The position numbers and the translations under genes were made by a program. The notes under the pieces were generated by a model. It had not been told where the DNA came from and did no database searches. It saw nothing but the letters and a program-made list of their open reading frames with translations. 64,000 bases of DNA, from the NCBI GenBank assembly GCA_027019265.1, contig JALUWX010000112.1, forward strand, positions 62,001-126,000, written 5' to 3'. This document shows, piece after piece, positions 18,707-54,514 of the stretch. The DNA comes from Phycisphaerales bacterium. GTDB lineage: Bacteria > Planctomycetota > Phycisphaerae > Phycisphaerales > UBA1924. Every line of letters starts with the position of its first letter. Positions within the stretch are counted from its first letter, which is position 1.

Positions 18707-18712
18707 CCGTTC

Positions 18713-18718
18713 AGTGTA
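18713..18718 (-). promoter_or_regulatory. -10 box of scpA, leaderless arrangement
   Basis: On the minus strand TACACT ends 6 nt before the scpA ATG, with no Shine-Dalgarno between. Transcription would begin at or next to the start codon. Confidence 0.55.
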
Positions 18719-18730
18719 GCGCAATTCGCC

Positions 18731-18736
18731 TATTCT
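18731..18736 (+). promoter_or_regulatory. -10 box of kdsD, leaderless arrangement
   Basis: TATTCT, then TGGGGG (6 nt), then ATG. Faces the scpA box within a 36-nt intergenic gap, so the two promoters must overlap. Confidence 0.55.
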
Positions 18737-18742
18737 TGGGGG

Positions 18743-19816
18743 ATGACGAGCACCCGATCCGTCCCCGAAACGAGCCCGCGCGTGCGATCCAACGCCCCCA
18801 ACCCGTCTGAAGAGATCCGATTCATCGCGTCGGTCCTCGAACACGAATCCAGCGCCATCGCGCGGATCGCGTCCGGCGTTGACGACACCTTCGTGAGCGC
18901 CGTGGACCTCATCGTCCAGTGCGCCGACTCCGGGGGGAACGTGGTCGTCTCTGGTCTGGGCAAGTCCGGGCACATCGGCGCCAAGATCAGCGCCACCCTT
19001 GCTTCCCTCGGGATCCCCTCCCACGCCGTCCACCCCACCGAAGCCGCCCACGGCGATCTCGGGCGCTTCCAGTCCAGAGACGTCGTCATCGCCCTGAGCC
19101 ACTCAGGAGAAACCGAGGAACTCGTCAACCTCGCCGCGATCCTCCGCCAGGACAAGCTCCCGATCATCGCGATCACCCGGGGGGACACCGACACCCACGA
19201 CCCTTCCTCCCTCCAGCGCCTCGCGCACGTCACCCTCAAGGTCGGGGTCGTGGACGAAGCCGGGGACGGATCCGTCCCCGCGCCCACCACCTCGACGACG
19301 GCCGCCCTCGCCATCGGGGACGCGCTCGCGCTCGCCGCAGCGCGACGACGCGCCTTCTCCCACGACGACTTCCGAGCCCGTCACCCCGGGGGACAGCTGG
19401 GCTCCCTCCTCCGTCCCGCGCTCGAGCTCGTCCGATTCCGCGCGGGAGAGAACCTCCCCATCGCGCACGAGTCCGACACCGTCGCAAACGCGCTCACCAG
19501 CGCCGCCCAGGTCGTCCGTCGTCCCGGCGCGCTCCTGATCGTCAACGACTCCGGAGAGCTCTCCGGGATCTTCACCGACTCCGATCTCCGCCGTCTCGTC
19601 CTCGAAGACCCGAGCAAACTCGACACCCCGATCCGCTCCGTCATGACGCGCGACCCGAAAGCGCTCCAGCCCAACGCGACGGCCGCTGATGCTGTCACCA
19701 TGTTCCGTCAGTACCGCGCGGACGAGATCCCCATCGTGGACGACAACAAGCACCCCCTCGGGCTCCTCGACGTCCAGGACCTCATCGCCATGCGCCTCGT
19801 GAAGGACGATTCGTGA
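18743..19816 (+). CDS. kdsD: D-arabinose 5-phosphate isomerase, KdsD/KpsF type
   Basis: 357 aa. Converts ribulose 5-phosphate to arabinose 5-phosphate for KDO synthesis. N-terminal SIS domain with GNVVVSGLGKSGHIGAKISA and the HPTEAAHGDLG and SHSGETEEL motifs, the RHPGGQLG segment, then two CBS domains (about 225-350; TVANALTSAAQVV, IRSVMTRDPKALQPNATA). Extra ~30 residues precede the SIS domain. The ATG at 18743 is chosen; the longer frame would run into scpA. It overlaps kdsC by 4 nt (GTGA). Confidence 0.95.
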   Translation: MTSTRSVPETSPRVRSNAPNPSEEIRFIASVLEHESSAIARIASGVDDTFVSAVDLIVQCADSGGNVVVSGLGKSGHIGAKISATLASLGIPSHAVHPTEAAHGDLGRFQSRDVVIALSHSGETEELVNLAAILRQDKLPIIAITRGDTDTHDPSSLQRLAHVTLKVGVVDEAGDGSVPAPTTSTTAALAIGDALALAAARRRAFSHDDFRARHPGGQLGSLLRPALELVRFRAGENLPIAHESDTVANALTSAAQVVRRPGALLIVNDSGELSGIFTDSDLRRLVLEDPSKLDTPIRSVMTRDPKALQPNATAADAVTMFRQYRADEIPIVDDNKHPLGLLDVQDLIAMRLVKDDS

Positions 19817-20319
19817 GCCAGCCCGACCCCAAAGACACCCAGCTCCTCGTCTTCGACGTTGACGGCGTCCTGACCGACGGCACCATCAACCTCGACGACC
19901 ACGGGGTCGAAACCAAACGCTTCAACGTCCGCGACGGGTTCGGGATGAAGCTCTGGATGAACAAGGGCTTCCAGATCGCGATCATCACCGGACGTTCGGG
20001 TGAAGCGCTCAAGCACCGACTCGCAACCTTCGGGATCGAGGACGAACTCATCATCCAGGGCTCGGGAAACAAATCCGAATCCCTCGACAAGATCCTCGCG
20101 CACACGGGGATCGACGAAGCCCACATCGCCTACCTCGGCGACGACTGGCCCGACCTCCCGGCCATGCGCCGCGTCGGATACCCCATGGCCGTCGCCGACG
20201 CCGAGCCCGAAGTCATCGCCAAAGCCCGTTACATCACCACCCGAAAAGGCGGCCATGGCGCCGCGCGCGACGCGATCGCGCACCTGCTCGAATGCAAAGG
20301 CCGCTATTCACCCGAGTGA
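19813..20319 (+). CDS. kdsC: KDO-8-phosphate phosphatase
   Basis: 168 aa. HAD-family phosphatase removing phosphate from KDO-8-P. Motif I is FDVDGVLTDGTI (nucleophile Asp and acid/base Asp), motif II TGRSGEAL, motif III Lys plus GDDWPDLPAM. It lacks a cap domain, as expected for this subfamily. GTG start overlapping kdsD. Together they supply the KDO branch, implying LPS-like outer-membrane glycolipid. KdsA and KdsB are not in the window. Confidence 0.95.
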   Translation: MSQPDPKDTQLLVFDVDGVLTDGTINLDDHGVETKRFNVRDGFGMKLWMNKGFQIAIITGRSGEALKHRLATFGIEDELIIQGSGNKSESLDKILAHTGIDEAHIAYLGDDWPDLPAMRRVGYPMAVADAEPEVIAKARYITTRKGGHGAARDAIAHLLECKGRYSPE

Positions 20320-20342
20320 ATGTGGAATCGGCAGTGGGGGGG

Positions 20343-20915: not shown

Positions 20916-20980
20916 CGATCGCTCCGTGCGTTTCACCCAATCGGTCCGCCGATCCTAGGGGCCCTCCCGTTCCCGTGCCC

Positions 20981-21547
20981 TCACCCGAGGGTCAGGATCC
21001 GCCCCGACGGGATCGCGCGGACCAACTCCCCAATGCGCTCCGATCCCCCCAACTCATCCGACCGATCCACCACCCCCCAGACACACCCCATCTCCGAATA
21101 CGCATCCGTGAACCGCTTCACGTGATCCTCCGCGTCCGATTCCATACTCGGCGCGATCCACCCGACCGGGTCCGCGAGCACCTGCGCCCCCAGATTCCCC
21201 ATCGCACGGACCCAGCTCTGGGTACAGATTGCATCGCTCAGCTTCCCCCCGAGACCCGGGAGCACCACCAACTCAATCCCCTCGTCCTTCGCGCGGCCCA
21301 GCACCCCCTTCGACATCGCGAAGTACGAGTCCCACGAATCCTGCGACCACCCCAGCAGCGCCTCCGCGCTGGGCTCCGGGTCCACCCGCGCATGCTCCCC
21401 GCACCGGACGATCAGTGTCCCGCTCGGCGCAGCAAGCTCCATCTCCGCCGACAGCACCCCGTCGCTCACATCCGCGATCACCGCGCCGTCTTCACCGATC
21501 ACCTGGGTCCGGGTCATCACACTTCGCAAAGGGGTCGTCGTCATCAT
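20981..21547 (-). CDS. Conserved-looking hypothetical protein, 188 aa
   Basis: No family recognised. The middle contains ELVVLPGLGGKLSDAICTQS and the C-terminus GELVRAIPSGRILTLG; the alternation of strands and helices suggests a compact alpha/beta fold. No signal peptide. ATG at 21547 is chosen because a TACGAT box ends 5 nt before it, fitting the leaderless pattern; the next ATG (21544) is adjacent. Divergent from the LptC/OstA-like gene with a 50-nt gap. Confidence 0.65.
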   Translation of the reverse strand: MMTTTPLRSVMTRTQVIGEDGAVIADVSDGVLSAEMELAAPSGTLIVRCGEHARVDPEPSAEALLGWSQDSWDSYFAMSKGVLGRAKDEGIELVVLPGLGGKLSDAICTQSWVRAMGNLGAQVLADPVGWIAPSMESDAEDHVKRFTDAYSEMGCVWGVVDRSDELGGSERIGELVRAIPSGRILTLG

Positions 21548-21552
21548 CCCCC

Positions 21553-21558
21553 ATCGTA
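21553..21558 (-). promoter_or_regulatory. -10 box of the 188-aa gene, leaderless arrangement
   Basis: Minus-strand TACGAT, then five G, then ATG. No Shine-Dalgarno-like spacing is possible. Confidence 0.5.
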
Positions 21559-21585
21559 GTGGGGGACCCCGCACGATCGCCGCAC

Positions 21586-21591
21586 TACCAT
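21586..21591 (+). promoter_or_regulatory. -10 box of the LptC/OstA-like gene, leaderless arrangement
   Basis: TACCAT, then six C, then ATG at 21598. Opposes the TACGAT box of the divergent gene 27 nt away. Confidence 0.5.
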
Positions 21592-21597
21592 CCCCCC

Positions 21598-24500
21598 ATG
21601 CCCGGACCCCGAGGCCCATCACCCCGATTGCTCGGACTCATCGCGGCCGCGATCATGAGTCTCGTCTTCATCGCGATCATCTGGATCTCGATCAGCCCCT
21701 CCACCTCCACCCAATCCGACGACCCCTTCGGGGACGACGAGGACATCCCCTCCCTCGAGGAGATGGAAGAGGGATCCCGGATGGTCGTCACCATCGCCGA
21801 CCGGGACGACCCCACCCGGATCGCCGGAACCCTCGTCGCCGACGAGTTCACCCCCATCGGCCAGGGCCGACGAAGACTCGTCAACCCCGATGCCTGGATC
21901 TACACCCGGGACGGCCGCGCCATCCACGTCACCTCCGACACCGGCGTCCTCCTTATGCCCAACCCCAACGAGCCCCCCGAGTCCGGGACCCTCGAGGGGA
22001 ACGTCACCATCAACGTCCACGACACCGTGGATGGCGCAAACCGCAGCACCCCCGGCGCCTTCGACACCGGGTCCGACCCCACCCTCATCGCACGCTTCAA
22101 AGACCCCGTCGAGTTCGAACGGCGCTACCTCCGCCTCACCTCGTCGGGCTCCTTCACCATCGAGAGCGACGCGCTCGACTTCTGGGGCGCGGACCTCACC
22201 ATCATGCTCAACGACGTCCAGAACCGCGTCGAGCTCATCGAAGTGAAACAAGGCGAGCGCCTCGTCCTCCGCCAGCGCGAATCCACCCCCATCACCCACA
22301 CTCCCGAGCAGCACCCCGGAGTCCGCTTTACCCACGCAAGCTACACCCGCGTGCAGGACGACACCCCGGGCGACGAACCAACCATCACCCCCGCGCCGAC
22401 CCCGAAGCCAAGCCCGAAGCGCGAAACCCCCTACCACACCACCTTCGACCAGGACGTCCGTGTCGAGCTCATGGGCACGGGCAATGTCACCGCCGACACC
22501 CTCGAGATCTGGTCCCTCATGATCGACGGCTCACTCCCGAGCACCGCCGTCCGGGACATCAACTTCGCCGAGGACACCCAGACCGCGCCGAGCCCGACCC
22601 CCTTCGAAACCAACGACGACCCCGCCGAACCGGAAGCCGGTTCGCCCTCCCCGGACATCGCCGAAGAGAACGGACCCCGTCCAACCACAGAGAGCAAACG
22701 GAAGCCCTCGACACCTGCTACAACACCAACACCGCGCCTCGCGCCGAGGACCACCGACCTGAACGAGGGCGACGTCCTCATCACCTGGGAAGGCCCCCTC
22801 GTCGTCAAACCCATCAAAGCCGACCAGCCCAACCCCCTCCTCGACGACCAACTCATCCTCGCGCTCAGCGCCGATGAACGAGTGGACTTCAGCGCCCCCG
22901 ACCGAGGGCTCTCCGGGCACACGAAGCGCCTCGCCTACCACGCAACCCAGGGCCGTCTCGACCTGAGCGCGGATCCCACCGATCCCCTCTCCATCAACGT
23001 CGAGAACTCCGGGGCCATCGAGACCACCTCGATCAACGCCGACCTCGCGCGCGGGATCATCGCGATCGAAGCCCAGGGCACCATCTCCAGCGCCCCGACC
23101 CCGACCGATCCCATGGCGCAGATCGGATGGAACGACCGCGCCCAGTTCACCCTCCACACCCAAGACGACGGCACCATCCTCCAGCGCCTCTCCGGCGCCG
23201 CCTTCGAAGGCGCGGTCCTCGCCTCGCGCGACGACGCCGTCGTCAACGCGGACACCATCATCGCGACCCTCCGACCCGACGGCGATCCCAACACCTCCCT
23301 TGAATCCATCGCCCTCACCCAGGGCGCCCTCCGCTCCGACGAGGGCTCCCTCGCAGGGGACGAGATCACCATCGGGTTCACCCAGGACATCACCAACCTG
23401 CGCGTCAACCCCTCGACCCTCAGCGCCAAAGGCGCCGTCGTCGGGTCCTCCACCCAAGGGCGCATCGAAACCCAGACCCTCGACGCGCTCCTCGCGCGGG
23501 ACCTCTCCGGCGAAGTCCGGGTCCGCCGCGCCACAGCAACCGGCCCCACCGACTTCCTCGGAGAGAACAACACCCACGCCAACGGGACCCAGCTCAGTGT
23601 CAACACCGAAACCAACACCATCGTCATCGCCGGCGACAACGCCCGCGCCGGACAAGGCGGGTCCGTCATCCGTGGAGACGAGATCGAGATCAACACCCGT
23701 CAGCGCGCCGCAAACGTCACCGGCCCAGGGACCTTCGACCACGACATCATGACCGACGGCGTCCCCACAGGAGGACACCTCCGCGTTTCGTGGACGCAGT
23801 CCATGCGCTTCGAAGACGCGCTCGGGACCATCGAGTGCGCCGGAGACGTCGAAGCCATCTCCACCCCCGATGCATTCACCCGGGACACCCTCAAAGCCCA
23901 GCGCGTCGAGATCGAGCTCTCCCCCCTCCCCGAAGCGGACCGGATCCGCGACCCCTTCTCCGAAACCAACGAAGCCCCCGAACGACAGCTCCTGAGCGCC
24001 CGCGCCTTCGGACGCGCCCGCGCCGGGACCGACCCGGAACCCGCGAGCGTCGAGTCGCGCACCTACGACCCGAGCGATCCCGACCGCGCTATCGGGGTCC
24101 TCTACCTCGAGGGGTCGGAGATCATCGCCGACAATCAAGCCCAGACCCTGAACGTCCCCAGCGCCGGGACCATGCTCATCCTCGACCGGGACGACTCCGA
24201 CGACGCGCCCCAGACCGACAGCTCCGTCACCCCCGGCCCCACCGGCCCCGGGCTCACGCGCATGACCTGGTCCGGGTCCCTCGCGCTCAACCGCGCCTCC
24301 GGGAATGCAACCATCCTCAACAACGTCCAGATCCGCCACAAATCACTCAACACCGCGCGCGTCTCGGACCTCATCGCCGACCGACTCGACGCAACCTTCA
24401 GCGTCGCGCAGGGCAGCGACCCGAGCGATCCCGCCTCGATGGGCGCCGTCTCCCTCCTCCGAGCCCACGCGCAAGGCCGGGTCCGCTTCATCGACGCAAA

Positions 24501-32027: not shown

Positions 32028-32033
32028 TACCCT
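32028..32033 (+). promoter_or_regulatory. -10 box of the histidine kinase, leaderless arrangement
   Basis: TACCCT, then CTCACC (6 nt), then ATG at 32040. Confidence 0.5.
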
Positions 32034-32039: not shown

Positions 32040-32885
32040 ATGATCATCGGCCTCGCCATCGGTCTCCTCGTCGGCCTCGCCGCCGGGACCGCGATCGCGC
32101 GTGTCTCCGTCGCGCGAGCCATCGCACGCGCCCGTGTCTCCGAACGACGAGCCCGTTCCGCCGAACGACTCGCCGAGATCGGTTCCATGACCTCCGGCCT
32201 CGCGCACGAGATCAAAAACCCCCTCTCCACCATCGGGCTCAACGCCCAGCTCCTCAGCGAAGCGATCGAAGAACTCGAGATCCCCGAAACCGACCGGACC
32301 CGGATGACCCGAAGGGTCGGCGCGCTCCGCTCCGAAACCGAACGACTCCGGGGGATCCTCGAAGACTTCCTCCAATACGCAGGAGAGCTCAGACTCGCGC
32401 TCCGAGAGACAGACATCAACCAGCTCGTGGAGGAGCTCGCCGACTTCTTCCACGTCCAAGCCCAGTCCCGGAACGTCAGGATCCGCATCGAGCTCGCGCC
32501 TACACCCATCAACGCCGTCGTCGATCCCGACCATCTCAAACAAGCCCTCCTCAACCTCATGCTCAACGCCGTCGCCGCGATGGACCGACCCGACATCACC
32601 CAGCGCGAGCTCATCCTCCGCACCCGCGCCACCCGCGCCGAGGACTCCACCCAGGTCGCCGCGATCCACGTCATCGACACCGGACCCGGGATCGACCCCG
32701 AGACGATCGAGAAGATCTTCCACCCATACTTCACTACGAAAGCGGGGGGGACCGGGCTCGGGCTCCCCACGGCGCGGCGCATCGTCGAAGCCCACCACGG
32801 GCACCTCGACGTTCACGCCGTCCCCGGGACCGGGACCGAGTTCTGTCTCACCGTCCCCATCGATCCCCAGCCCCAATCCGACTGA
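32040..32885 (+). CDS. Membrane-anchored sensor histidine kinase (NtrB-like)
   Basis: 281 aa. N-terminal membrane helix (about 1-20), a short coiled linker, then HisKA with His56 in GLAHEIKNPLSTIGLN, and HATPase with the N box (HLKQALLNLMLNAVAAM), G1 (DTGPGI), F box (FHPYFTTK) and G2 (GGTGLGLPTARRI). No sensory domain beyond the N-terminal helix, and no response regulator beside it, so its partner is elsewhere. Signal unknown. Confidence 0.9.
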   Translation: MIIGLAIGLLVGLAAGTAIARVSVARAIARARVSERRARSAERLAEIGSMTSGLAHEIKNPLSTIGLNAQLLSEAIEELEIPETDRTRMTRRVGALRSETERLRGILEDFLQYAGELRLALRETDINQLVEELADFFHVQAQSRNVRIRIELAPTPINAVVDPDHLKQALLNLMLNAVAAMDRPDITQRELILRTRATRAEDSTQVAAIHVIDTGPGIDPETIEKIFHPYFTTKAGGTGLGLPTARRIVEAHHGHLDVHAVPGTGTEFCLTVPIDPQPQSD

Positions 32886-34168: not shown

Positions 34169-35004
34169 CAGATATGCGTCCGAACGTCCCAGAGCTCTGG
34201 GAAGAACCGATGGTCGATCATCTTGCGCAGGAAGTTCACCCCGCTCGAGCCCCCCGTCCCGATCTTGTACCCGATCACCCGTTCCACCACCTTCATGTGC
34301 CGGAACCGCCAGTGCGCGAACTGCTCCTCCACATCCACCAGCTTCTCGCACATCTCGTACGCATCCCAGAACCGTTCGGGCTCCGTGTAGATGATCTTGA
34401 ACGCTTCGAGCACCCCCTCGTTCGCCACATGCGCCACCGTCACATCCCGCTCCAGCACCTCCCCCGGGATCGGGAGCCCGCGCCGATCCAGATACCGAAG
34501 GAACTCGTCGTAGATACTCGGCGCTTCCATCGCCTCGCGAACCATCGCCCCGTGCACCGGGTCGTGCTCGTGGATCTCGAGCATCCGCTTGTCCTTGTTC
34601 CCGAGCATGAACTCCACCACCCGGTACTGCACACTCTGGAACCCCGACCCCTTCCCGAGCACATGCCGAAACTGGACGTACTCCGCCGGGGTCAGCGTCG
34701 CGAGCACATCCCACTGCCTCAGCAGCACCCCCTGGATGTGCTTCACCCGAGCCAGGATCTTAAACGCCGGCTCAAGCTGATCCCCCTGGATCCACGTCAC
34801 CGCCGACTTGAGCTCATGGATCAGCAGCTTGAACCACAGCTCCGTCGTCTGATGCTGGATGATGAACAGCAGCTCGTCGTGGTGCTCGGGCTCCGACAAC
34901 GGGTGCTGCGCCGACAGCAATGTCTCCAGGTCCAGATATCCCGAATAGGTCATCCCCTCATCGAGCTTCGTGTGGAGCGAATCCTCAAACGCACGCTGTT
35001 CCAT
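34168..35004 (-). CDS. kynA: Tryptophan 2,3-dioxygenase
   Basis: 278 aa. Haem enzyme making N-formylkynurenine. Family segments: [20 protein letters not shown] near the N-terminus, [29 protein letters not shown], and [14 protein letters not shown] near the end, which forms the active-site loop. Length matches bacterial TDO. Start is backed by GGAGG upstream and a TAGACT box at 35031-35036. Together with kynU it forms most of a kynurenine pathway; no kynB is visible beside it. Confidence 0.94.
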
Positions 35005-35124
35005 CGATCAACCTCCGTCCAGTGTCCCCGAGTCTAGCAGCCCCCTACCCACCACCCGATCCGCCCCCAATCGTCCCCGGGGTGTACACTTGACCTGACT
35101 TCAAGGAACCGAGGAACCCCACCC

Positions 35125-36002: not shown

Positions 36003-37016
36003 GTGGACGATTCAAGCGCCCTCACCCAATCCCTCATCACCCGCGCCCACGAGCTCGGCTTCGCCCTCACCGGGATCGCAACCCTCGAGCCCATCGACCG
36101 CGCCCCCCAGCTTCTCGATTGGCTCGACCAAGGCAAGCACGGCTCCATGTCCTGGATGGAATCCCACACCGACCTCCGCACCGACCCGGGCAGGATCCTC
36201 GACCACGCAAAGTCCGCCCTCGTCGTCGCCGACCTCTACGCAACCCGCGCCACCAACACCGACACCCCCCTGAAGCCCGGCGAAGGCCGAATCGCGCGCT
36301 ACGCGCGGGGTCGTGATTACCACGACACCATGAAGCAACGCCTCCACACCCTCGCCGACGAACTCAGAGCCCTCGCGCCCGATTCGGACACCAAATGCGT
36401 CGTGGACACCGCCCCTGTCCACGAGCGTGAGCTCGCCCAGCGCGCCGGGCTCGGATGGATCGGGAAACACACCCTCCTCATCCACCCCAAAGCCGGCTCC
36501 TACATGCTCCTCGGCGCCCTCGTCACAACCCTCGACCTCACCCCCCCGAGCTCTCAACCCACGATCACCGACCACTGCGGCTCATGCACCCGCTGCATCG
36601 ACGCCTGCCCCACACACGCCATCACCCCCTACAGCGTCGATGCCACCAAATGCATCGCCTACCTCACCATCGAACACCGCACCCCCATCGACCCCGCCCT
36701 CCATGAAGGGATCGGAGATTGGGCCTTCGGGTGCGACATCTGCCAGGAAGTCTGCCCCCACAACTCACCACGCACCCCCGAGTCACTCGACCCGAACCAC
36801 CGAACCCCCAACCCCGTCTACCACAGCACCCGGGACCGACTCGACCTCCGCGACATCCTCACCTGGACCCCCGAAGACCGATCACGCGAGCTCAAAGGCA
36901 GCGCCATGAAACGCTCCAAGCTCGACATGCTCAAACGAAACGCGATGATCGTCCTCAAAAACCAGGGCGTGGACTTCACATCATCGTGTGAGCATCCGAC
37001 CGATCCGTGCCCTTGA
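36003..37016 (+). CDS. queG: Epoxyqueuosine reductase
   Basis: 337 aa. Cobalamin- and Fe-S-dependent last step of queuosine synthesis on tRNA. N-terminal domain with VVDTAPVHERELAQRAGLGW (active-site region), then two 4Fe-4S motifs: CGSCTRCIDACP at 192-203 and CDICQEVCP at 244-252. GTG start 8 nt after the preceding gene; a longer frame through that gene is rejected. The 3' end overlaps the convergent membrane-protein gene by 41 bp. Confidence 0.93.
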   Translation: MDDSSALTQSLITRAHELGFALTGIATLEPIDRAPQLLDWLDQGKHGSMSWMESHTDLRTDPGRILDHAKSALVVADLYATRATNTDTPLKPGEGRIARYARGRDYHDTMKQRLHTLADELRALAPDSDTKCVVDTAPVHERELAQRAGLGWIGKHTLLIHPKAGSYMLLGALVTTLDLTPPSSQPTITDHCGSCTRCIDACPTHAITPYSVDATKCIAYLTIEHRTPIDPALHEGIGDWAFGCDICQEVCPHNSPRTPESLDPNHRTPNPVYHSTRDRLDLRDILTWTPEDRSRELKGSAMKRSKLDMLKRNAMIVLKNQGVDFTSSCEHPTDPCP

Positions 37017-40000: not shown

Positions 40001-40006
40001 AGCGTA
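40001..40006 (-). promoter_or_regulatory. -10 box of the MBL-fold gene, leaderless arrangement
   Basis: Minus-strand TACGCT, then GGGCC (5 nt), then ATG. Lies 14 nt beyond the T-run of the GAPDH terminator. Confidence 0.55.
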
Positions 40007-43111: not shown

Positions 43112-44433
43112 CGCGACAGCGCCCCCTCCATCTCGTACCGAACCTCGCCGCCCACGATCGTCATCACCGCGCGCACCCCCATCTCCCAACCAAGGAACGG
43201 CGTGTTCACGCTCTTCCCACCCAGATCCTCCTCGCGCAGCGTCCACGAGTGATCCGGATCGATCACCGTCACATCCGCCGTCCCCCCGACCTTCAGCGAC
43301 CCGATCCCGCATCCGTCCAAGCAGCACAGCTTCGCCGGGTTGATCGTCATCATCTCGAGCATGTCGCGCCACCCGATCACCCCCGTCTCGATCAGCGCCT
43401 TGTGGTACAGCCCCAGCGCCGACTCGAGCCCGATGATCCCGAACGGCGCCGCCGCCACCGGGTTCCGTTTCTCGTCCGAGTGATGCGGCGCATGGTCCGT
43501 CGCAAGGATCGTGATGATCCCCTCACGGATCCCCTCCTTGAGCGCATCGATATCCGACTGCTCCCGGAGCGGCGGGTTCATCTTCGCCATCGACCCCTGC
43601 TTCTCAACCGCTTCGTCCGTCAGCAGCAAGTGGTGGGGGGACGCTTCCGCCGTCACGGGCTGACCCTCGCGCTGCGCCCGCGCCACGATCTCCACCGACC
43701 CCCCCGAAGACATGTGCTGCACGTGGTACGCGCACCCGATCCCCGAGTTGAGCCGAACATCGCGCTCGATGATCAGCTCCTCCGCCTCGCGCACCCACCC
43801 CTTGAGCCCGAGCTTCTGCGCCACCTCCCCAGCGTGCATCACCGCGCCCTGGGTCAGCGTCGTCTCCTGACAGTGCTGCATGAACGCTTTCCCCGTCGGA
43901 GCCACCGTCGCAAGCACCGCGCGCATCACGTTCGCGCTCTCGATCACATCCCCATCGTCCGAGAACCCGACGGCCCCAGCCCGATCGCACAGCCCGATCT
44001 CCGCGAGCCGCTCCCCCTTCCGACCCGCCGTCGCGCACGCGACACTGAACACCCGACACTTCCCCTCCCGCGCCGACTTCGAAGCCACATACTCCACCAT
44101 CTCCGGCGAATCGAGCGCCGGCGACGTGTTGGGCATACAGCACACCGTCGTGAACCCCCCGATCACCGCCGCGTTCGTCCCGCTCGCGATGTCCTCTTTA
44201 TGCGTCTGCCCCGGGTCCCTCAGGTGCACATGCGGGTCGATGAGCCCCGGAGCCACGATCAGCCCCTCACATTCCACCACCCGATCGAACCCCGAAGGAT
44301 CCACCGATTCCCCGATCTCCCGGATGGTTCCCCCCTCCAGCACCACATCGCGGGTCGCATCCAGACCCGAACCCGGGTCAACGACACGCCCTCCACGGAG
44401 CAGAACACTCCCCGACTTCGTTGAATCGCTCAT
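43108..44433 (-). CDS. pyrC: Dihydroorotase (PyrC, class I type)
   Basis: 441 aa. Third step of pyrimidine synthesis: carbamoyl aspartate to dihydroorotate. Metal-binding DPHVHLRDPGQTHKEDI, GGFTTVCCMPNTSPALDS, a central MQHCQE and a HMSSGGSVEIV segment, and ILATDHAPHHSDEK near the end, all class I dihydroorotase hallmarks. The start is leaderless with TATCGT 5 nt upstream. It is translationally coupled to the P1B ATPase, an unusual pairing. Divergent from tRNA-Pro. Confidence 0.94.
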   Translation of the reverse strand: MSDSTKSGSVLLRGGRVVDPGSGLDATRDVVLEGGTIREIGESVDPSGFDRVVECEGLIVAPGLIDPHVHLRDPGQTHKEDIASGTNAAVIGGFTTVCCMPNTSPALDSPEMVEYVASKSAREGKCRVFSVACATAGRKGERLAEIGLCDRAGAVGFSDDGDVIESANVMRAVLATVAPTGKAFMQHCQETTLTQGAVMHAGEVAQKLGLKGWVREAEELIIERDVRLNSGIGCAYHVQHMSSGGSVEIVARAQREGQPVTAEASPHHLLLTDEAVEKQGSMAKMNPPLREQSDIDALKEGIREGIITILATDHAPHHSDEKRNPVAAAPFGIIGLESALGLYHKALIETGVIGWRDMLEMMTINPAKLCCLDGCGIGSLKVGGTADVTVIDPDHSWTLREEDLGGKSVNTPFLGWEMGVRAVMTIVGGEVRYEMEGALSR

Positions 44434-44438
44434 CCCCG

Positions 44439-44444
44439 ACGATA
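44439..44444 (-). promoter_or_regulatory. -10 box of pyrC, leaderless arrangement
   Basis: Minus-strand TATCGT, then CGGGG (5 nt), then ATG. No Shine-Dalgarno can fit. Confidence 0.55.
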
Positions 44445-44473
44445 GCCCCCCTCGCCCCGCCCGATTTCCGCGC

Positions 44474-44479
44474 TATCAT
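44474..44479 (+). promoter_or_regulatory. -10 box of tRNA-Pro
   Basis: TATCAT about 28 nt before the tRNA 5' end, oriented toward it. A -35 element is not clear. Confidence 0.4.
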
Positions 44480-44507
44480 CACGACCGCTCGAAAGAGCAA
44501 ACACCAC

Positions 44508-44582
44508 CGGGGTGTAGCGCAGCTTGGTTAGCGCGTCTGACTGGGGGTCAGAAGGTCGGAGGTTCGAATCCTCTCACCCCGA
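44508..44582 (+). tRNA. tRNA-Pro (anticodon GGG)
   Basis: Acceptor stem CGGGGTG (44508-44514) pairs with CACCCCG (44575-44581), discriminator A at 44582. Anticodon stem TCTGA/TCAGA with loop CTGGGGG, giving anticodon GGG, which reads CCC codons. T-arm contains GGTTCGAATCC. No encoded CCA. The gene sits at the left edge of the AT-richer patch. Confidence 0.95.
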
Positions 44583-44596
44583 TTCTTTGAGTGACC

Positions 44597-44626
44597 AAGC
44601 CCTTCGGCGAGCGCGTCGAAGGGCTT
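44597..44626 (+). terminator. Hairpin terminator after tRNA-Pro
   Basis: AAGCCCTTCG (44597-44606) with CGAAGGGCTT (44617-44626), a 10-bp perfect stem with a 10-nt loop, followed by TCTC. T-tract is weak. Confidence 0.65.
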
Positions 44627-45041
44627 TCTCATTGTGGGGGGTTGGGGATTGTGACGTAGAGCGAATAGTTCATGCTGGCGATTTTGAAGCTACGTCGCTT
44701 GGAGGCGCATTGCGCGAAACGGGGTATGTACTAAGTGCATCGTTTCAAATGTGCTCCATGACTATGACTGATGAAACTCTGACTCTGACAGGATCTGTGA
44801 GTTGACTCTTCCTCAGAACAAGTCCGCCTGCTATGCGGCAACACAGCGGGGTGGATGCCTCGATTAAGAGGAATTCTGATGCAATTCAGTACACTCAGCC
44901 GAATCAATCATAACGCAACTGCGGAAGGTAGGAGTGATGTTGGATCAGGGTGTAGCCGTCCACGAGATTTCATGTCAGATCGGCGTGGCCAAGCAGACGT
45001 TTGGTTGTTAATAAAAATTATATGTTGAAGGAGGATTCACA
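44627..45041 (+). other. AT-richer region after tRNA-Pro without an intact gene
   Basis: Compositionally unlike the rest of the window (visibly more A/T, including TTAATAAAAATTATATG). From about 44880 it contains an IS3-type transposase fragment. The rest (44631-44879) shows no supported open frame; an in-frame ATG reading from inside the tRNA is chance. Confidence 0.6.
44880..45011 (+). pseudogene. Decayed IS3-family transposase OrfA fragment
   Basis: The frame ending at the TAA at 45009 translates to AESIITQLRKVGVMLDQG followed by VAVHEISCQIGVAKQTFGC. This matches the helix-turn-helix start of IS3-family OrfA proteins (generic form: EQII-KLREVEVLLSQG, then VAEACRQIGVTEQTYYRWR). Here the reading stops right after QTF, and an in-frame TGA lies at 44877-44879. 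So only about 40 residues remain; no OrfB and no terminal inverted repeats are visible. The match is from memory of the family, not a search. Confidence 0.6.
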
Positions 45042-46268
45042 ATGCGAGCAAAGTCGATTTTCAGGCGTTTCGGAGTAGTGTTGGGTGTATTTTGTATGTA
45101 CAGCGGGGCCATGGCGATCGATGGCGGGACTCCCCCGGCAAGCACCGACACACGTTTTGATGCTGTTGCAGGGTTTTCGCTGACCTCATGGCTTGAGGTC
45201 ACGGATCCGAGTGATTCGCGATACGGGAACACCTCCTGCGGAGCAACCTTGATTGATCAGCATCATGCGATTCTGGCGCGTCATTGTCTTCCTGTGCAAT
45301 TTGACAGCTCAAATCCGCCAGAGCCTTACGCATATTCGCTGCGATTCAGGCGAAAAACGGATGGTACTGTGGGCGGGTTCCAGGATCCGCCCAGCGCATT
45401 TCATGATGTTGAGATTGACTACTTCTTGTTCTCTGAGCAGAATTTGCCGCATCACGAAAACCCGGGCGAGACACTCGCCAACCCCGACCTCGTGATCGCG
45501 CATTTGGCGACTCCGGTCACGCATATCAATCCACTGGATTTTGCTAGCGAAGCCGAAGTTGTTGCAAACCTGGGTGAGCCTGCGTGGCTGGTTTCGTGGG
45601 CTCGTCGGGCGATGCGGGCATGTGACTCCGCTGTTCCCTCCGGGGTATCATCGATCACGGTTGGGTGGAATGAGCCGGGGAGTTGTGGTGTCGAAAACAA
45701 TGATTCGGGAGGAGGGCTCATCATTGAAGTTTATGATGATGTCGCTGAAATCTATGTGCCGAAGCTCGCGGGAGTGATAGTGCAATTTGGATCGGCCGTC
45801 CGCCCACAGATCCATCAGGCACTGGAGACGGAATGCGTGTATGCATGGGCAAGCTATGCGGATTTCGTGCTGCCTGAATATTCGTGTGACAGTATTCTAT
45901 CTGTCGATTTGAACAATAACTACATGGTCGATGAGGGAGATATCGCGTTGCTCACAGCCATGCAAGGGCCTTGCAGTGGTGGGGATCCGTGCTCTGCGTT
46001 CGATCTTGATCAAGACGGCGTCTTGACCAAGGCAGAAATCAACCTGATTGTCTCGTTGATGATCCCGGCACTGGGCAACAGGTGTGAATGTATTGAAGAT
46101 ATAAATGACGATGGGATGATCGACAGCGCCGACTTGGCAGAGTTGACAGCGGCGTGGGGTTTGTGCCCTTGTGATGACATCTGCCCCGCCGATTTTAACA
46201 AAGATTACGCGGTCGACTCAGCTGATCTGGCGATGTTGCTTGCGGCATGGGGTCCTTGTGATCACTGA
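45042..46268 (+). CDS. Secreted trypsin-like serine protease with EF-hand/dockerin-like C-terminus
   Basis: 408 aa. Signal peptide (1-25, GVFCMYSGAMA). A chymotrypsin-fold domain with His81 (AILARHCL), Asp149 (NPDLVIAHLATP) and Ser222 (NNDSGGGLI), each in the usual context, though the Gly before Asp-Ser and the Pro after Gly-Gly are changed. The C-terminus (about 290-408) has four DxN/DxDG loops such as DLNNNYMVDEGD, DLDQDGVLTKAE, DINDDGMIDSADLAEL and DFNKDYAVDSADLAML, resembling EF-hand or dockerin repeats. Strong AAGGAGG ribosome-binding site. Third positions are less GC-biased than in neighbouring genes, suggesting foreign origin. Confidence 0.8.
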   Translation: MRAKSIFRRFGVVLGVFCMYSGAMAIDGGTPPASTDTRFDAVAGFSLTSWLEVTDPSDSRYGNTSCGATLIDQHHAILARHCLPVQFDSSNPPEPYAYSLRFRRKTDGTVGGFQDPPSAFHDVEIDYFLFSEQNLPHHENPGETLANPDLVIAHLATPVTHINPLDFASEAEVVANLGEPAWLVSWARRAMRACDSAVPSGVSSITVGWNEPGSCGVENNDSGGGLIIEVYDDVAEIYVPKLAGVIVQFGSAVRPQIHQALETECVYAWASYADFVLPEYSCDSILSVDLNNNYMVDEGDIALLTAMQGPCSGGDPCSAFDLDQDGVLTKAEINLIVSLMIPALGNRCECIEDINDDGMIDSADLAELTAAWGLCPCDDICPADFNKDYAVDSADLAMLLAAWGPCDH

Positions 46269-46297
46269 TACGCAAATGTAAACATCCGAATCTGTGC

Positions 46298-46335
46298 AGC
46301 ATACTTCCTTTGCGAAGCCGCAAGGGAAGTATGCT
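46298..46335 (+). terminator. Long 17-bp hairpin after the protease gene
   Basis: AGCATACTTCCTTTGCG (46298-46314), loop AAGC, then CGCAAGGGAAGTATGCT (46319-46335). All positions pair, one as G-U. No T-run follows directly, but an AT-rich stretch starts 14 nt later. It may be a bidirectional terminator or a repeat remnant. Confidence 0.6.
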
Positions 46336-47018
46336 ACGCTCGCATTCATAAAATTTATTTTCGTGGCTCTGCCATCTCATAAGTATCGCATCCTCCACGT
46401 TGACGAATCGCGGCCTGCTTAGATTTTGATGCTGTGGTCACAAGGATTGGGCGGTCGTCTTTGCATCAGCATCTCCCGTCCCACATCCACGCGACCACCA
46501 TCGACCATGTCGCCACAACCCTCCTGTCGACACACCTCGCCGATCACTCCAGTCAGCTGCGACTCCGGCATCGAATCTACGATTAAGCCCACATCGCTGA
46601 CAAAGCCCTAGAGAGGCCACAACACAAAAAGGTGAGCCCCAAATAGATCTGCCTCTCACAATCCTCAGCTCAATTGAACACTCGCCAATCACTAGCTCAG
46701 CCGTGCCCCGGAGTTGTCGCGGGGGACAGCATCCAACCCTCACCATACCATGGGCCTCGCGGGAACGATCGGGTACGCCCACTGGTTAAATACTAAGTCA
46801 TGGTGTCCTTGCTCCGGCGAGTTTCGTTGCCAATGGCTTTGAAGCCACAAAATTTATTTCGTCTGTACTTCAAGAGCGACTAATCCTGAGTCAGATCACC
46901 CCACCCATCTCCGTCAGCCCACAAAGCTCCCCCTCAAGAGAGAAATTCTCGACCACCGCTCCCGCGCCCCAACCCAGATCTCAGTATCATGACATCGGCC
47001 TGATGGACACAGTCACCC
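46336..47018. other. 680-nt region without a supported gene
   Basis: Contains an 11-nt AT-rich direct repeat (46350-46360 and 46849-46859, AAAATTTATTT) about 500 nt apart. On the minus strand a 60-codon frame beginning GFVSDVGLIVDSMPESQL, preceded by a TAG stop with coding-like residues beyond it, may be a decayed gene. I do not recognise a protein here. A TATCAT box at 46985-46990 may drive the next gene. Confidence 0.5.
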
Positions 47019-48629
47019 ATGAGTTCTTTTTCCAAACAAAACGGGAAAATATGCACGCTCGAGCAGCTCGTCGCCCACCGATCTGAATCCAGATTGCTCG
47101 GCGAGCCCGTCGTCCATTGCCACGGGTGCTTCGACATCGTCCACCCGGGACACGTCCGACACCTCGAACACGCCCGTCAGCTCGGGAAACGCCTGGTCGT
47201 CACAGTCACCGCCGACGAGTTCATCCACAAAGGCGCAGGCCGACCCTTCTTCTCCGAGCACCTCCGAGCAGAAAACCTCGCCGCCCTCTCATGCGTCGAT
47301 TGGGTATACATCAATCACAATCCCACCGCTTCAGAAATCATCCACCAGCTCCAACCCGATGTGTACGTCAAAGGCGTCGAGTACGAACACAACAACGACC
47401 CCAGGTTCACAGCCGAACGAGACGCCGTCGAATCCAACGGCGGCCGAGTCGTCTTCTCGTCGGGCGATGTCGTGTTCTCATCCAGCAAGCTCATCGAGGC
47501 GCTCTCAAGAAACCCCCAAGACTCCAGCGCGAACACGAACCCAGCCCTCCAAAGTCTGAGACACATGCACACACTCACGAGCGAGATGGTGGATGACACC
47601 ATCCAGCTCATGAGCGGGAAGCGTGTCCTCGTCATCGGAGAAAGCATCCTCGATACGTATGTGGAATGCTCCCAGCCGGAAGTCGCCAGCGAATCCCCCG
47701 TGCTCTCGCTCCGCCCGCTTCTCAAACAGAGCTTCCTCGGCGGCTCCGCGATCATCGCCCAGAATCTCGCATCAATGGGCGCCAAGGTCACCCTGATCAC
47801 CCCATCGCCAAAGAGCCAGTCCGGCGCATCCTTCGAGTCCCAGCTCGGTTCGCAGGGGATCGACGTCATCCCCATCACCTACGAAGGCCCCATGCACGAG
47901 AAAGAACGCTTCCTGTGCCGAGGCCAGAAGCTCTTCAAACTCGATCGGTGTGTCAAGATCGACTTCGACCACATGACACGACGCCGCCTGCTCGAAACCG
48001 CGTGCAAGCACGCACAGAACGCCGACGCAGCAATCATCGCCGACTACGGGCTGGGCATGTGCGGCGCCAAACTCACACAAGACCTGTTCATCAAACTCCG
48101 CCCGCTCGTCCCCTTCCTCGCAGGAGACGTGTCCGGATCGCATACGAGTCTCTCCCACATGCTCCACGCCGACTGGCTCACCCCTTCCGAGCACGAACTC
48201 CGGAGCGCCGTCCCAGACCATGCCGAATCGCTCCCCTCCATGGTCCTCAACCTGATGAAAAAGACCCAGGCCAAAAGGATCGCCCTCACCATGGCCGAAG
48301 ACGGCGTGGTCATGTTCGAGCATGTCGAATCACAAGAAGCCCCGGACGGCCAACTGCTCCAACTCACAAGCCAGCACATCCCATCCCTCAACCACGCGCC
48401 CACCGATGTCCTGGGCTGCGGCGACGCATTCCTGGCATTGAGCACCCTCTCCCATATCGCCGGCTCATCCTCCGTCATGGCCCTCTACATCGGCTCTCTC
48501 GCCGCAGGAGTCAGCGCCGGACGTTTAGGGAACCACCACGTGACCAGAGACGAGATCCTCAACCTGAGCAGGCAACTCGACAGAGAGTTCGCCCGCCAGG
48601 AACAGCCCATCGCCCTGGGACTCGAATGA
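47019..48629 (+). CDS. Bifunctional cytidylyltransferase/PfkB-type sugar kinase, reversed HldE order
   Basis: 536 aa. N-terminal nucleotidyltransferase domain (about 1-175): HCHGCFDIVHPGHVRHLEHA with the HxGH motif. C-terminal PfkB (ribokinase-like) domain (about 200-510): GGSAIIAQNLASMGAKVTLI and the anion-hole motif DVLGCGDAFLAL. HldE (heptose synthesis, kinase then nucleotidyltransferase) has the opposite order. Likely makes a nucleotide-activated sugar for the glycosyltransferases downstream; ADP-heptose-type chemistry is inference. The 3' end overlaps the first glycosyltransferase by 4 nt (ATGA). Confidence 0.8.
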   Translation: MSSFSKQNGKICTLEQLVAHRSESRLLGEPVVHCHGCFDIVHPGHVRHLEHARQLGKRLVVTVTADEFIHKGAGRPFFSEHLRAENLAALSCVDWVYINHNPTASEIIHQLQPDVYVKGVEYEHNNDPRFTAERDAVESNGGRVVFSSGDVVFSSSKLIEALSRNPQDSSANTNPALQSLRHMHTLTSEMVDDTIQLMSGKRVLVIGESILDTYVECSQPEVASESPVLSLRPLLKQSFLGGSAIIAQNLASMGAKVTLITPSPKSQSGASFESQLGSQGIDVIPITYEGPMHEKERFLCRGQKLFKLDRCVKIDFDHMTRRRLLETACKHAQNADAAIIADYGLGMCGAKLTQDLFIKLRPLVPFLAGDVSGSHTSLSHMLHADWLTPSEHELRSAVPDHAESLPSMVLNLMKKTQAKRIALTMAEDGVVMFEHVESQEAPDGQLLQLTSQHIPSLNHAPTDVLGCGDAFLALSTLSHIAGSSSVMALYIGSLAAGVSAGRLGNHHVTRDEILNLSRQLDREFARQEQPIALGLE

Positions 48630-49753: not shown

Positions 49754-49760
49754 CACACCG

Positions 49761-51447: not shown

Positions 51448-51503
51448 ACCCCACGATCCTAGCAGCACCGAACGCCCGCTCCAGAGCGTGCGGAAATCTC
51501 AAC

Positions 51504-52631: not shown

Positions 52632-52732
52632 CCCAACACCTCCGCGCACTGAGACCCTCACCCCCACAGATGCGCCCCCCGCACCATCCGGTCACATATC
52701 TCAAATCAAACCCACCCCAAGCACCAGCGCGT

Positions 52733-53191
52733 TCACTCCGTCAGAGGAACCAGAAACCCCAAATGGTGCGCCCCATGCGCCGCATGGAACCGCTCAAACC
52801 CATCCTTGCTCATGGCCCCGAACCCAGGATGCGCATGGAGCTCTTCGCTCCACCCCCGGAACGCCGCCACACACCGCTCCAGTTTCGCGAGCTCCTCCCC
52901 ATCATCGAGCCCCTCCGCCGGAACAAACATCCCCGCCGTCTTCACCCCGTTGATCGACCGGCCATCCAGAATCCTCGGGAGCGCGAACCGCCGCAGCACC
53001 GGGCGCAGCGGCCACCCCATCACCGTCATCCACCTCGGATACCCGCGCATGTTCGATTCCATCGTCAACCGGAGATGACAACACATCTGACCGAGCGACC
53101 AGTTCCCCGTCTGTTCATACCCCGACCCCAAAAGCCCCCGGCACTCCCCAAGCAGCGCATCCAGATCCGCAAGCTTCAGCTCTCGTCGCAT
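52733..53191 (-). CDS. DUF1569/DinB-like metal-binding protein
   Basis: 152 aa. GNWSLGQMCCHLRLTMESN and the C-terminal HAAHGAHHLGFL provide the His residues typical of DUF1569, a branch of the DinB-like four-helix metalloprotein fold. Function unknown; some relatives bind metal and thiol cofactors. Start MRRELKLADLDAL at 53191 is chosen because the family begins there. Confidence 0.75.
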   Translation of the reverse strand: MRRELKLADLDALLGECRGLLGSGYEQTGNWSLGQMCCHLRLTMESNMRGYPRWMTVMGWPLRPVLRRFALPRILDGRSINGVKTAGMFVPAEGLDDGEELAKLERCVAAFRGWSEELHAHPGFGAMSKDGFERFHAAHGAHHLGFLVPLTE

Positions 53192-53283
53192 CACAACCAC
53201 CATCAACAACGCCCCGGCCGCGCCCTCGTCCCTCAAAGGATCCGCCCGAGCCAAACCCCCATCCTACCCCACCCCGAACGCAA

Positions 53284-53829
53284 TCACTCCGGGATCAGAT
53301 CCGCGTTCTCGATCTCCCCCATCCCAAAGATCGTTACATCCCCAGGACTCGCCGCGTGCTTCTTCGCGAGCCGCACATAGTGCGCGGGCAGCTTCGCGAG
53401 ATACGCGCGATCCGCATCGTTCACGTTCCGAACAATCTTTCCCGGAACCCCGACCACCACCGACCCGTCCGGAACCTCCATCCCCGGCGCCACCAACGCC
53501 CCCGCGCCGATCAGACACCCCTTCCCGATCTTCGTGTGCCCGAGCACCTTCGCCCCCATCCCGATCAGCGACCCGTCCCCGATGAACTCCCCGTGCACAA
53601 TCGCGCCATGACCGATCACGACATCCCGACCGATCACATTCGCGAACCGATGATCGCAATGGATCACCGCATTGTCCTGCACATTCGACCCAGCGCCGAT
53701 CACCACCGGCGCCACATCCCCCCGGATCACCGCGCCGTACCACACACTCACATCCGCGCCGAGCCGGACATCCCCGATCACCCGCGCCGTATCCGCGAGA
53801 TACGCACCGTCCCGTTCGTGCATGGTCAT
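53284..53829 (-). CDS. Gamma-carbonic-anhydrase-like hexapeptide-repeat protein
   Basis: 181 aa. Left-handed beta-helix with hexapeptide repeats (VIGDVRLGADVSVWYGAVIR, SNVQDNAVIHCDHRFAN, VVIGHGAIVHG). The His residues at NAVIHCDH and GHGAIVHG fit the zinc site of the gamma-CA/YrdA group. Enzymatic activity is not shown by sequence. Start at 53829 overlaps the stop of the acetyltransferase (ATGA), so they are co-translated. Confidence 0.85.
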   Translation of the reverse strand: MTMHERDGAYLADTARVIGDVRLGADVSVWYGAVIRGDVAPVVIGAGSNVQDNAVIHCDHRFANVIGRDVVIGHGAIVHGEFIGDGSLIGMGAKVLGHTKIGKGCLIGAGALVAPGMEVPDGSVVVGVPGKIVRNVNDADRAYLAKLPAHYVRLAKKHAASPGDVTIFGMGEIENADLIPE

Positions 53830-54503
53830 CGCGACACCCCTTCCGACACCGCGCGCAGCGCATCTAGATCCCGCGCCCGGATCGCATCCAGATTCGCCCC
53901 GATCGTCCCCGGATCCCAGTCCCACCACCGGATCTCCAGCAGCGCCCCGATCGTCTCCTCATCGAACCGCTTCGCGATCGCCTTCGCCGGGTTCCCCCCA
54001 ACAACCGAATAGGGCTCCACATCCCGCACCACCACCGACCCCCCAGCGATGATCGCCCCATCCCCGATCGTCACCCCGGGCATGATCATCGCGTTCATCC
54101 CGATCCACACATCATTCCCGATCACCGTGTCCCCCTTGTTCCCCGGGACCCGGAACATCGCCTCGATATCCGTCGCCGTCGTGCCCGTGTCCATCATGAA
54201 GTTCGCGAACGGGTACGTGGACAACCCCGACATGTTGTGATTCGCCGAGCTCGTCACGATCCGCACCCCGTGCGCGATCTGACAAAACTTCCCGATCACC
54301 AACCGCTCCGGGCTCAGCGGGAAAAGGAACGGTACCAGATACCCCGCATAGTCCTCCAGCACCTCCATGTGCCCGAAGTACGTGAAGTCCCCGATCTCGA
54401 TCCTCGGATGATCGATCACCCTGTTCAGGTGCACCACCTGCTTGATCACCGTCCCATCGGGCATCACCATCGGAAAAGTCTGTGTCGGATCGAGCGTTCG
54501 CAT
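53826..54503 (-). CDS. CatB/Vat-type hexapeptide acetyltransferase
   Basis: 225 aa. Xenobiotic acetyltransferase branch: after about 90 residues, KFCQIAHGVRIVTSSANHNM (active-site His in the loop), then TVIGNDVWIGMNAMIMPGV and AIIAGGSVVVRDVEPYSVVGG (hexapeptide coil and acetyl-CoA site). Similar by eye to VatD or chloramphenicol acetyltransferase B, but the substrate may be a sugar or lipid rather than an antibiotic. Start at 54503: TAGGAT ends 5 nt upstream. Co-transcribed with the gamma-CA-like gene. Confidence 0.85.
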   Translation of the reverse strand: MRTLDPTQTFPMVMPDGTVIKQVVHLNRVIDHPRIEIGDFTYFGHMEVLEDYAGYLVPFLFPLSPERLVIGKFCQIAHGVRIVTSSANHNMSGLSTYPFANFMMDTGTTATDIEAMFRVPGNKGDTVIGNDVWIGMNAMIMPGVTIGDGAIIAGGSVVVRDVEPYSVVGGNPAKAIAKRFDEETIGALLEIRWWDWDPGTIGANLDAIRARDLDALRAVSEGVSR

Positions 54504-54508
54504 CATCG

Positions 54509-54514
54509 ATCCTA
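54509..54514 (-). promoter_or_regulatory. -10 box of the CatB-like gene, leaderless arrangement
   Basis: Minus-strand TAGGAT, then 5 nt, then the ATG at 54503 (an earlier ATG overlaps those 5 nt). Starts just downstream of the terminator of the previous minus-strand gene. Confidence 0.5.

What the first reader, a model, noticed from the sequence alone, without database searches (positions are those of the whole stretch)
18707..54514. Recurrent leaderless-gene signature: TAnnnT ending 5-6 nt before the start codon
Seen in sequence: eight genes have a TAnnnT hexamer whose last base is 5 or 6 nt before the start codon, and no Shine-Dalgarno. They are scpA (TACACT), kdsD (TATTCT), the 188-aa gene (TACGAT), the LptC/OstA-like gene (TACCAT), the histidine kinase (TACCCT), the MBL-fold gene (TACGCT), pyrC (TATCGT) and the CatB-like gene (TAGGAT). 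Genes with TAnnnT about 26-37 nt upstream (kynA, the aminotransferase, nuoC) do have GGAG-like sites. Known: leaderless mRNAs in Deinococcus and actinobacteria show this geometry. Inference: leaderless initiation is common in this lineage. The -35 region is not conserved in these eight.
Basis: partly seen in the sequence, partly recalled or inferred. Interest (0 to 1): 0.72.

Follow-up and report, generated by a model that had tools for sequence, protein, structure and literature searches.

The report
Leaderless genes in a planctomycete lineage
In this planctomycete bacterium many genes appear to start their messenger RNA right at the first codon, using a promoter reduced to three conserved bases; this way of starting genes is known from other bacteria but seems little documented in this group.

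Summary
All eight TAnnnT hexamers lie 5-6 nt before the stated starts. The window belongs to a 3.04-Mb genome whose named relatives are mostly Phycisphaerales, Planctomycetota. In a 610.8-kb sample (20%) with starts called without looking upstream, TAnnnT at gaps 5-8 occurs 65 times in 494 genes against 11.4 expected, and at gap 6 is the top-ranked positional pattern; it avoids Shine-Dalgarno (SD) genes (6 of 217 versus 59 of 277). Within the genus all testable rows of five of the genes keep TA...T at gap 5-8 (100 of 100 rows, 97 distinct), while bases further upstream vary freely. The histidine kinase does not (3 of 17); the CatB-like gene could not be tested.

Best reading: -10-only promoters starting transcription at the start codon, hence leaderless mRNAs, beside an SD class with an intact anti-SD. 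In this genome -35 TTG is enriched only upstream of SD-led genes (15 of 49 versus 4 of 91), a coupling not replicated in order relatives. The mechanism is known from Deinococcus-Thermus and Actinobacteria; the lineage is the new part. Across the phylum the signal is patchy (4 of 15 small samples at p<0.01). No RNA 5' ends were available.

The parts
18713..18718 (-). -10 hexamer TACACT of scpA, gap 6 to ATG at 18706
   Evidence: TA...T before a start in 22 of 30 orthologue rows, 21 of 21 in the genus but 1 of 9 outside it; SMC_ScpA Pfam
18731..18736 (+). -10 hexamer TATTCT of kdsD, gap 6 to ATG at 18743; faces the scpA -10 across 12 bp, 36 bp between the two start codons
   Evidence: 28 of 29 orthologue rows; in 10 of 19 genus relatives scpA lies on the opposite strand upstream with both genes TA-led, 48-1290 bp between starts, in the other 9 no scpA within about 1.5 kb; SIS and CBS domains
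21553..21558 (-). -10 hexamer TACGAT of the 188-aa gene, gap 5 to ATG at 21547
   Evidence: in 30 LptC loci a homologue was found in 11 (own included), all 11 TA-led; no Pfam family
21586..21591 (+). -10 hexamer TACCAT of the LptC/OstA-like gene, gap 6 to ATG at 21598; 50 bp between starts of the divergent pair
   Evidence: 24 of 24 orthologue rows from 21 genomes; LptD_N Pfam
32028..32033 (+). candidate -10 hexamer TACCCT of the histidine kinase, gap 6 to ATG at 32040
   Evidence: weak: 5 of 26 orthologue rows, 3 of 17 in the genus
40001..40006 (-). -10 hexamer TACGCT of the MBL-fold gene, gap 5 to ATG at 39995
   Evidence: 19 of 29 orthologue rows, 19 of 19 in the genus, 0 of 10 outside it, where 6 rows have an SD-like motif instead
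44439..44444 (-). -10 hexamer TATCGT of the pyrC-like amidohydrolase gene, gap 5 to ATG at 44433
   Evidence: 23 of 30 orthologue rows, 17 of 17 in the genus
54509..54514 (-). candidate -10 hexamer TAGGAT of the CatB-like (hexapeptide) gene, gap 5 to ATG at 54503 or gap 2 to ATG at 54506
   Evidence: orthologues not testable: only partial hexapeptide matches in 4 of 24 relatives
35031..35036 (-). contrast case: TAGACT at gap 26 upstream of SD-led kynA (ATG at 35004, GGAGG)
   Evidence: SD-like motif in 8 of 8 genus rows (own included), none TA-led

Best explanation
The hexamers are the -10 elements of housekeeping-sigma promoters that have no -35 element. RNA polymerase is placed so that transcription begins at or 1-2 nt before the first base of the start codon, so the mRNA has no leader and no SD. 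Such mRNA would be bound through its 5'-terminal AUG and initiator tRNA on a 70S or IF2-loaded ribosome. A second class in the same genome has a -10 about 20-55 nt upstream plus a leader with SD, and in about a third of the cases a -35 TTG at spacer 15-19. Shown here: position, conservation, lack of a -35, separation from SD genes, intact anti-SD. Inferred: the RNA 5' end, the sigma factor, and the ribosomal route (from published work on other bacteria).
For: Positional peak with signal-blind starts, 65 against 11.4 expected in 494 genes, and near-exclusion with SD. Allowing alternative starts, 91 of 499 genes (18%) have it; best decoy pattern 67. Orthologue rows: kdsD 28/29, LptC-like 24/24, pyrC 23/30, scpA 22/30, MBL 19/29, against SD-led kynA 2/16; 188-aa 11/11. 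In the genus 100 of 100 rows of five genes keep TA...T at gap 5-8; in the 97 distinct promoters the bins from -45 to -7 before the hexamer have 1.45-1.88 bits of entropy, so no conserved -35. TA...T at other 4-nt-wide gap ranges is rarer: at most 5 of 29 (kdsD), 3 of 30 (pyrC), 1 of 24 (LptC), 5 of 29 (MBL), 9 of 30 (scpA). Bimodal promoter distance. 0 of 43 co-directional TA-led genes overlap the upstream gene against 35 of 176 SD genes, p 3e-4. 16S 3' end GGATCACCTCCTTTCT. The D. radiodurans MP1 control shows the same signal: 7 of 71 genes, and 10 against 2.8 expected allowing alternative starts.
Against: No transcript data. Histidine kinase at decoy level. kdsD of G029 has none. A same-genus 80-kb sample (G010) shows no peak, 3 against 3.9 expected, although its kdsD, pyrC, LptC, scpA and MBL are TA-led. 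For scpA the decoys TT...A (20 of 30) and T..A.T (19 of 30) score nearly as high as TA...T (22 of 30), and for LptC T..A.T has 15 of 24, partly because TACAAT contains it. The invariance of T1, A2 and T6 is built into the search; the finding is that no genus row failed. Position 3 in pyrC and position 5 in LptC are invariant too, so the middle is not free in every gene. Absence from overlapping genes may partly reflect coding constraint, since TA is rare in coding sequence.
Confidence: 0.92

Rival explanations
1. TAnnnT is a non-SD ribosome-binding signal in a transcribed leader and not a promoter element.
For: It replaces SD (6 of 217 versus 59 of 277) and sits near the start codon like an RBS.
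Against: Not found in co-directional genes that overlap the upstream gene (0 of 43, SD 35 of 176); the conserved bases are those of a -10 hexamer; anti-SD is normal; in D. radiodurans the motif could not be replaced by an RBS (PMC12340547, passages).
Confidence: 0.04
2. Chance or composition: short AT-containing hexamers in a 64% GC genome picked by eye.
For: Only three bases are specified; two further hits in the window were not listed.
Against: Poisson p 8e-28, top of a pattern ranking, and conservation in orthologues.
Confidence: 0.01
3. The head-to-head pairs (scpA/kdsD, 188-aa/LptC) are bidirectional promoters sharing one symmetric -10 element.
For: Starts 36 and 50 bp apart; 4 of 12 divergent pairs under 60 bp are TA-led on both sides against about 0.9 expected from a 0.28 share. 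One relative (G115) has a 23-bp pair around TATCCTA, readable as -10 on both strands.
Against: In the window the hexamers do not overlap (12 bp apart in scpA/kdsD); the distance between the two starts runs from 36 to 1290 bp among 11 genus genomes, and kdsD and scpA are TA-led also in the genus members where they are not neighbours. In 9 more distant loci scpA lies opposite kdsD but is not TA-led, while kdsD is in 8 of the 9. Over all divergent pairs both-sided cases equal expectation (7 against 6.6).
Confidence: 0.08

Closest known systems
-10-motif adjacent to ORFs, leaderless genes of Deinococcus-Thermus (Zhong 2025, PMC12340547, passages)
   Same: TANNNT a few bp before the ORF, bases 1, 2 and 6 irreplaceable, mostly no -35, coexisting -35/-10/RBS genes
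   Different: Different phylum; no experiment here; about 11-18% of genes here against about one third in D. radiodurans
TA-like signals of leaderless genes in bacteria (Zheng 2011, PMC3160421, passages)
   Same: TANNNT about 12 bp upstream of the start, uninformative middle in high-GC genomes, initiation mode changing between related genes
   Different: The word planctomycet- does not occur in the main text; leaderless genes in 207 of 953 bacterial genomes, the named groups not including Planctomycetes
Leaderless transcriptome of Mycobacterium tuberculosis (Cortes 2013, PMC3898074, passages)
   Same: TANNNT -10, no conserved -35, 22% of genes expressed in exponential phase leaderless
   Different: Mapped by RNA; no -35 motif found there, whereas here SD-led promoters are enriched for -35 TTG
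Bidirectional promoters of E. coli (Warman 2026, PMC12825309, passages)
   Same: Two divergent starts very close together
   Different: There a shared -10 with starts commonly 10, 18 or 23 bp apart; in the window two separate -10 elements
Non-SD genes of Planctomycetes (PMC5397173, passages)
   Same: One planctomycete species, with an upstream bias attributed to leaderless mRNA and/or ribosomal protein S1
   Different: In the passages seen no -10 motif, position or gene is given for it

Membership tests
TA-led leaderless genes (-10-adjacent promoters) | TAnnnT ending about 5-8 nt before the start codon, above chance | tested here: met
   65 against 11.4 expected in 494 genes
TA-led leaderless genes (-10-adjacent promoters) | No Shine-Dalgarno | tested here: met
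   59 of 65 lack it by a simple motif, and 4 of the other 6 owe the label to TAGGAT itself; anti-SD intact
TA-led leaderless genes (-10-adjacent promoters) | Bases 1, 2 and 6 constrained, middle less so | tested here: met
   100 of 100 genus rows of five genes keep TA...T; middle positions 0-1.47 bits. Not so for the histidine kinase (3 of 17)
TA-led leaderless genes (-10-adjacent promoters) | No -35 element | tested here: met
TA-led leaderless genes (-10-adjacent promoters) | Not translationally coupled to an overlapping upstream gene | tested here: met
   0 of 43
TA-led leaderless genes (-10-adjacent promoters) | RNA 5' end at the start codon | not testable with these tools
   no transcriptome held
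Bidirectional promoters with a shared -10 | Shared -10, start sites commonly 10-23 bp apart | tested here: not met
   window pairs 36 and 50 bp, separate hexamers; one G115 pair looks like it
Non-SD ribosome-binding signals | Occurs also in genes overlapping the upstream gene of the operon | tested here: not met
   0 of 43

The most novel reading that the evidence does not exclude
In Phycisphaerales promoter class and translation class are coupled: promoters with -35 and -10 feed leadered SD genes, whereas promoters reduced to the three bases TA...T feed leaderless genes. This lets genes sit 20-60 bp behind a neighbour, or head to head 30-56 bp apart, with the polymerase footprint inside the neighbour's coding sequence. 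Support: own genome TTG 15 of 49 against 4 of 91, p 3e-5, seen after a first look; TA-led share 24 of 68 co-directional genes at 21-60 bp but 10 of 150 beyond 60 bp; median co-directional upstream distance 34 against 66.5 bp. Against: order relatives show no difference (4 of 25 against 4 of 35).
Probability: 0.4. Interest if true: 0.55.

Novelty: new member of a known kind. Interest (0 to 1): 0.45.

Why it matters
It adds a planctomycete order to the groups where leaderless expression looks like a major mode, beside a working SD system. That helps in choosing correct starts in these genomes (TAnnnT next to ATG marks the start; kdsD N-termini of different length begin there) and offers another lineage for asking how polymerase finds promoters defined by about three bases. 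The orthologues that are TA-led in one genus and SD-led outside it make the evolution of that switch testable.

Tried and rejected
A genome-wide pattern count (TANNNT N6 ATG, own genome) was useless: 254 matches against 252 for the reversed pattern, presumably because most ATGs are not starts. A fifth-order gene model on 80-kb samples gave poor calls; a second-order model and alternative starts replaced it, but even the window itself then gave only 2 of 48, so absence in any 80-kb sample is weak. An apparent depletion of TAnnnT at gaps 9-19 is clear against the promoter-rich zone 20-59 but not against the mostly coding background at 100-199 (0.40-0.67 versus 0.72 per position), so I call it bimodality and not avoidance. 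Extended -10 (TGn) was 6 of 65, not a substitute for -35. A shared bidirectional -10 in the window pairs was rejected.

Rows dropped or not seen: only the best 30 loci per search were fetched, so orthologue counts cover kdsD 30 of 61 genomes with a match, pyrC 30 of 34, histidine kinase 30 of 37, scpA 30 of 37, LptC all 30 match rows, MBL 30 of 34 match rows, kynA 16 of 16. Of these, loci whose match did not reach the N-terminus were dropped (kdsD 1, histidine kinase 4, LptC 6, MBL 1); LptC rows include three genomes twice. Of 503 genes called in the own sample, 494 had a real start and 80 nt upstream. The 29 named loci were used for naming only.
Full report
What was checked. The eight hexamers and spacings are in the sequence exactly as given. 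The window is part of a 3.04-Mb, 122-contig genome. Of 29 named loci that encode a kdsD relative, 18 records are titled Phycisphaerales and 4 Phycisphaerae or Phycisphaeraceae, 3 Planctomycetota, 2 only bacterium, and 2 carry other labels (Rhodothermia, Leptolyngbya); the order is inferred from this. Pfam supports ScpA, SIS and CBS domains (kdsD), LptD_N, histidine kinase, MBL fold, amidohydrolase/DHOase-like, hexapeptide transferase and, for the contrast gene, Trp dioxygenase; the 188-aa protein has no Pfam family.

Is it more than chance. I sampled 610.8 kb of the own genome and called genes with a script that chooses starts by coding score and start codon only. Of 503 genes, 494 were usable. 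TAnnnT at gaps 5, 6, 7, 8 occurs 19, 25, 8 and 13 times, with near-empty flanks, and at gap 6 it ranks first among the 3-of-6 patterns tested, ahead of the SD pieces. The sum is 65 against 11.4 (p 8e-28); SD genes have 6 of 217 and others 59 of 277 (p 1e-10); 58 of the 65 start with ATG. Allowing near-equal alternative starts gives 91 of 499 genes, the best decoy pattern being 67; the decoys show that this larger figure contains chance matches. Taking the excess of the blind count as the lower figure, the share is roughly 11-18%.

Conservation. Orthologues were sought in 60 relatives for kdsD and 36 for the other genes, the best 30 loci of each being read. TA...T at gap 5-8 before an acceptable start: kdsD 28 of 29, LptC-like 24 of 24 rows (21 genomes), pyrC 23 of 30, scpA 22 of 30, MBL 19 of 29, histidine kinase 5 of 26, SD-led kynA 2 of 16. 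Decoy patterns are mostly far lower, but not for scpA (TT...A 20 of 30, T..A.T 19 of 30), nor wholly for LptC (T..A.T 15 of 24), and for the histidine kinase they exceed it (AT...T 10 of 26). Inside the genus the first five are complete: 20/20, 23/23, 17/17, 21/21, 19/19. T1, A2 and T6 are fixed by the search pattern; what is informative is that no genus row failed while middle bases change (TACACT, TAGGAT, TATGAT, TAAGAT in scpA), and that the bins from -45 to -7 before the hexamer have 1.45-1.88 bits of entropy, so not even orthologues share a -35. The 188-aa gene, divergent from LptC, is TA-led in all 11 homologues found in 30 LptC loci. Outside the genus MBL is TA-led in 0 of 10 rows and scpA in 1 of 9, several rows having an SD-like motif instead. 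The CatB-like gene had no full-length relative in 24 genomes at the threshold used.

How it works. The hexamer has the place of a sigma-70 -10 element whose start site is the start codon, so the mRNA is leaderless. Against a translational signal: TA-led genes do not overlap a co-directional upstream gene (0 of 43; SD 35 of 176), and they sit close behind it (median 34 bp against 66.5). The anti-SD is intact and IF3 is encoded, so both modes coexist. Promoter distances are bimodal: 5-8 and about 20-55. In this genome the second class shows TTG at spacer 15-19 in 15 of 49 cases (control windows 0-5) and the first in 4 of 91 (control windows 4-9), p 3e-5. This comparison was made after seeing a first version of it and did not replicate in order relatives (4 of 25 against 4 of 35) or clearly in other classes (9 of 28 against 6 of 39).

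Head-to-head pairs. scpA/kdsD (36 bp between starts) and 188-aa/LptC (50 bp) each have two separate facing hexamers. Among 84 divergent pairs in the sample, 12 are under 60 bp; 4 of these are TA-led on both sides and 7 on one; over all 84 pairs both-sided cases (7) equal expectation (6.6). In 10 of 19 genus relatives scpA lies opposite kdsD with both TA-led, 48 to 1290 bp apart; in the other 9 it is not nearby, yet every genus kdsD and scpA row is TA-led. In 9 family loci scpA lies opposite kdsD without being TA-led. So the elements belong to the genes and not to one shared promoter.

Distribution. With 80-kb samples and alternative starts the signal reaches p<0.01, uncorrected, in 4 of 15 relatives: G129 (same family), G046 and G049 (same order) and G079 (another family of the phylum); G115 is marginal (p 0.011); the other ten are not significant, including same-genus G010. 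Controls: E. coli 7 against 14.4 expected, D. radiodurans MP1 10 against 2.8. These samples are small; the window alone behaves erratically in the same kind of test.

What is known. Passages read: Zheng 2011, PMC5397173, Zhong 2025, Cortes 2013, PMC10783764, Warman 2026. Together they describe the same geometry, the loss of -35 and the need for bases 1, 2 and 6 elsewhere, and one hint for a single planctomycete. Library searches for leaderless with Planctomycetes (4 papers), Planctomycetota (2) and Phycisphaer- (1) showed no gene-level report for this lineage in the listings and in the passages read of two of them; one search showed 10 of 238 papers, none holding the word leaderless. Subscription papers are not covered, and Zhong's domain-wide supplementary figure was not seen.

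Verdict. Observation confirmed and interpretation supported for six of eight genes; weak for the histidine kinase, untested for the CatB-like gene. New member of a known kind.

Noticed in passing
L190 (D. radiodurans MP1) 23963-23994: Annotated divergent genes whose starts are 30 bp apart, with two facing TAnnnT hexamers, like the window pairs.
   Followed up: partly
G115:C11 sample (L185-L188): Divergent pair 23 bp apart around TATCCTA, readable as a -10 hexamer on both strands with gap 9 to each ATG.
   Followed up: no
G000 sample, SD-led genes: TTG at -35 spacing is enriched upstream of SD-led but not TA-led genes.
   Followed up: partly
window 36003-37016: QueG-like gene with TAAACT-N5-GTG where TAA is the stop codon of the preceding gene.
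   Followed up: no
window 44001-48000: Lower GC (0.561 against 0.626-0.666 in the other 4-kb bins) and sparse genes.
   Followed up: no
G040, G109, G119: No IF3 C-terminal domain match in 3 of 78 genomes of the phylum search; may be incompleteness.
   Followed up: no
L048 (G029): kdsD orthologue without a TA-led start, although TACCCT lies further upstream.
   Followed up: no
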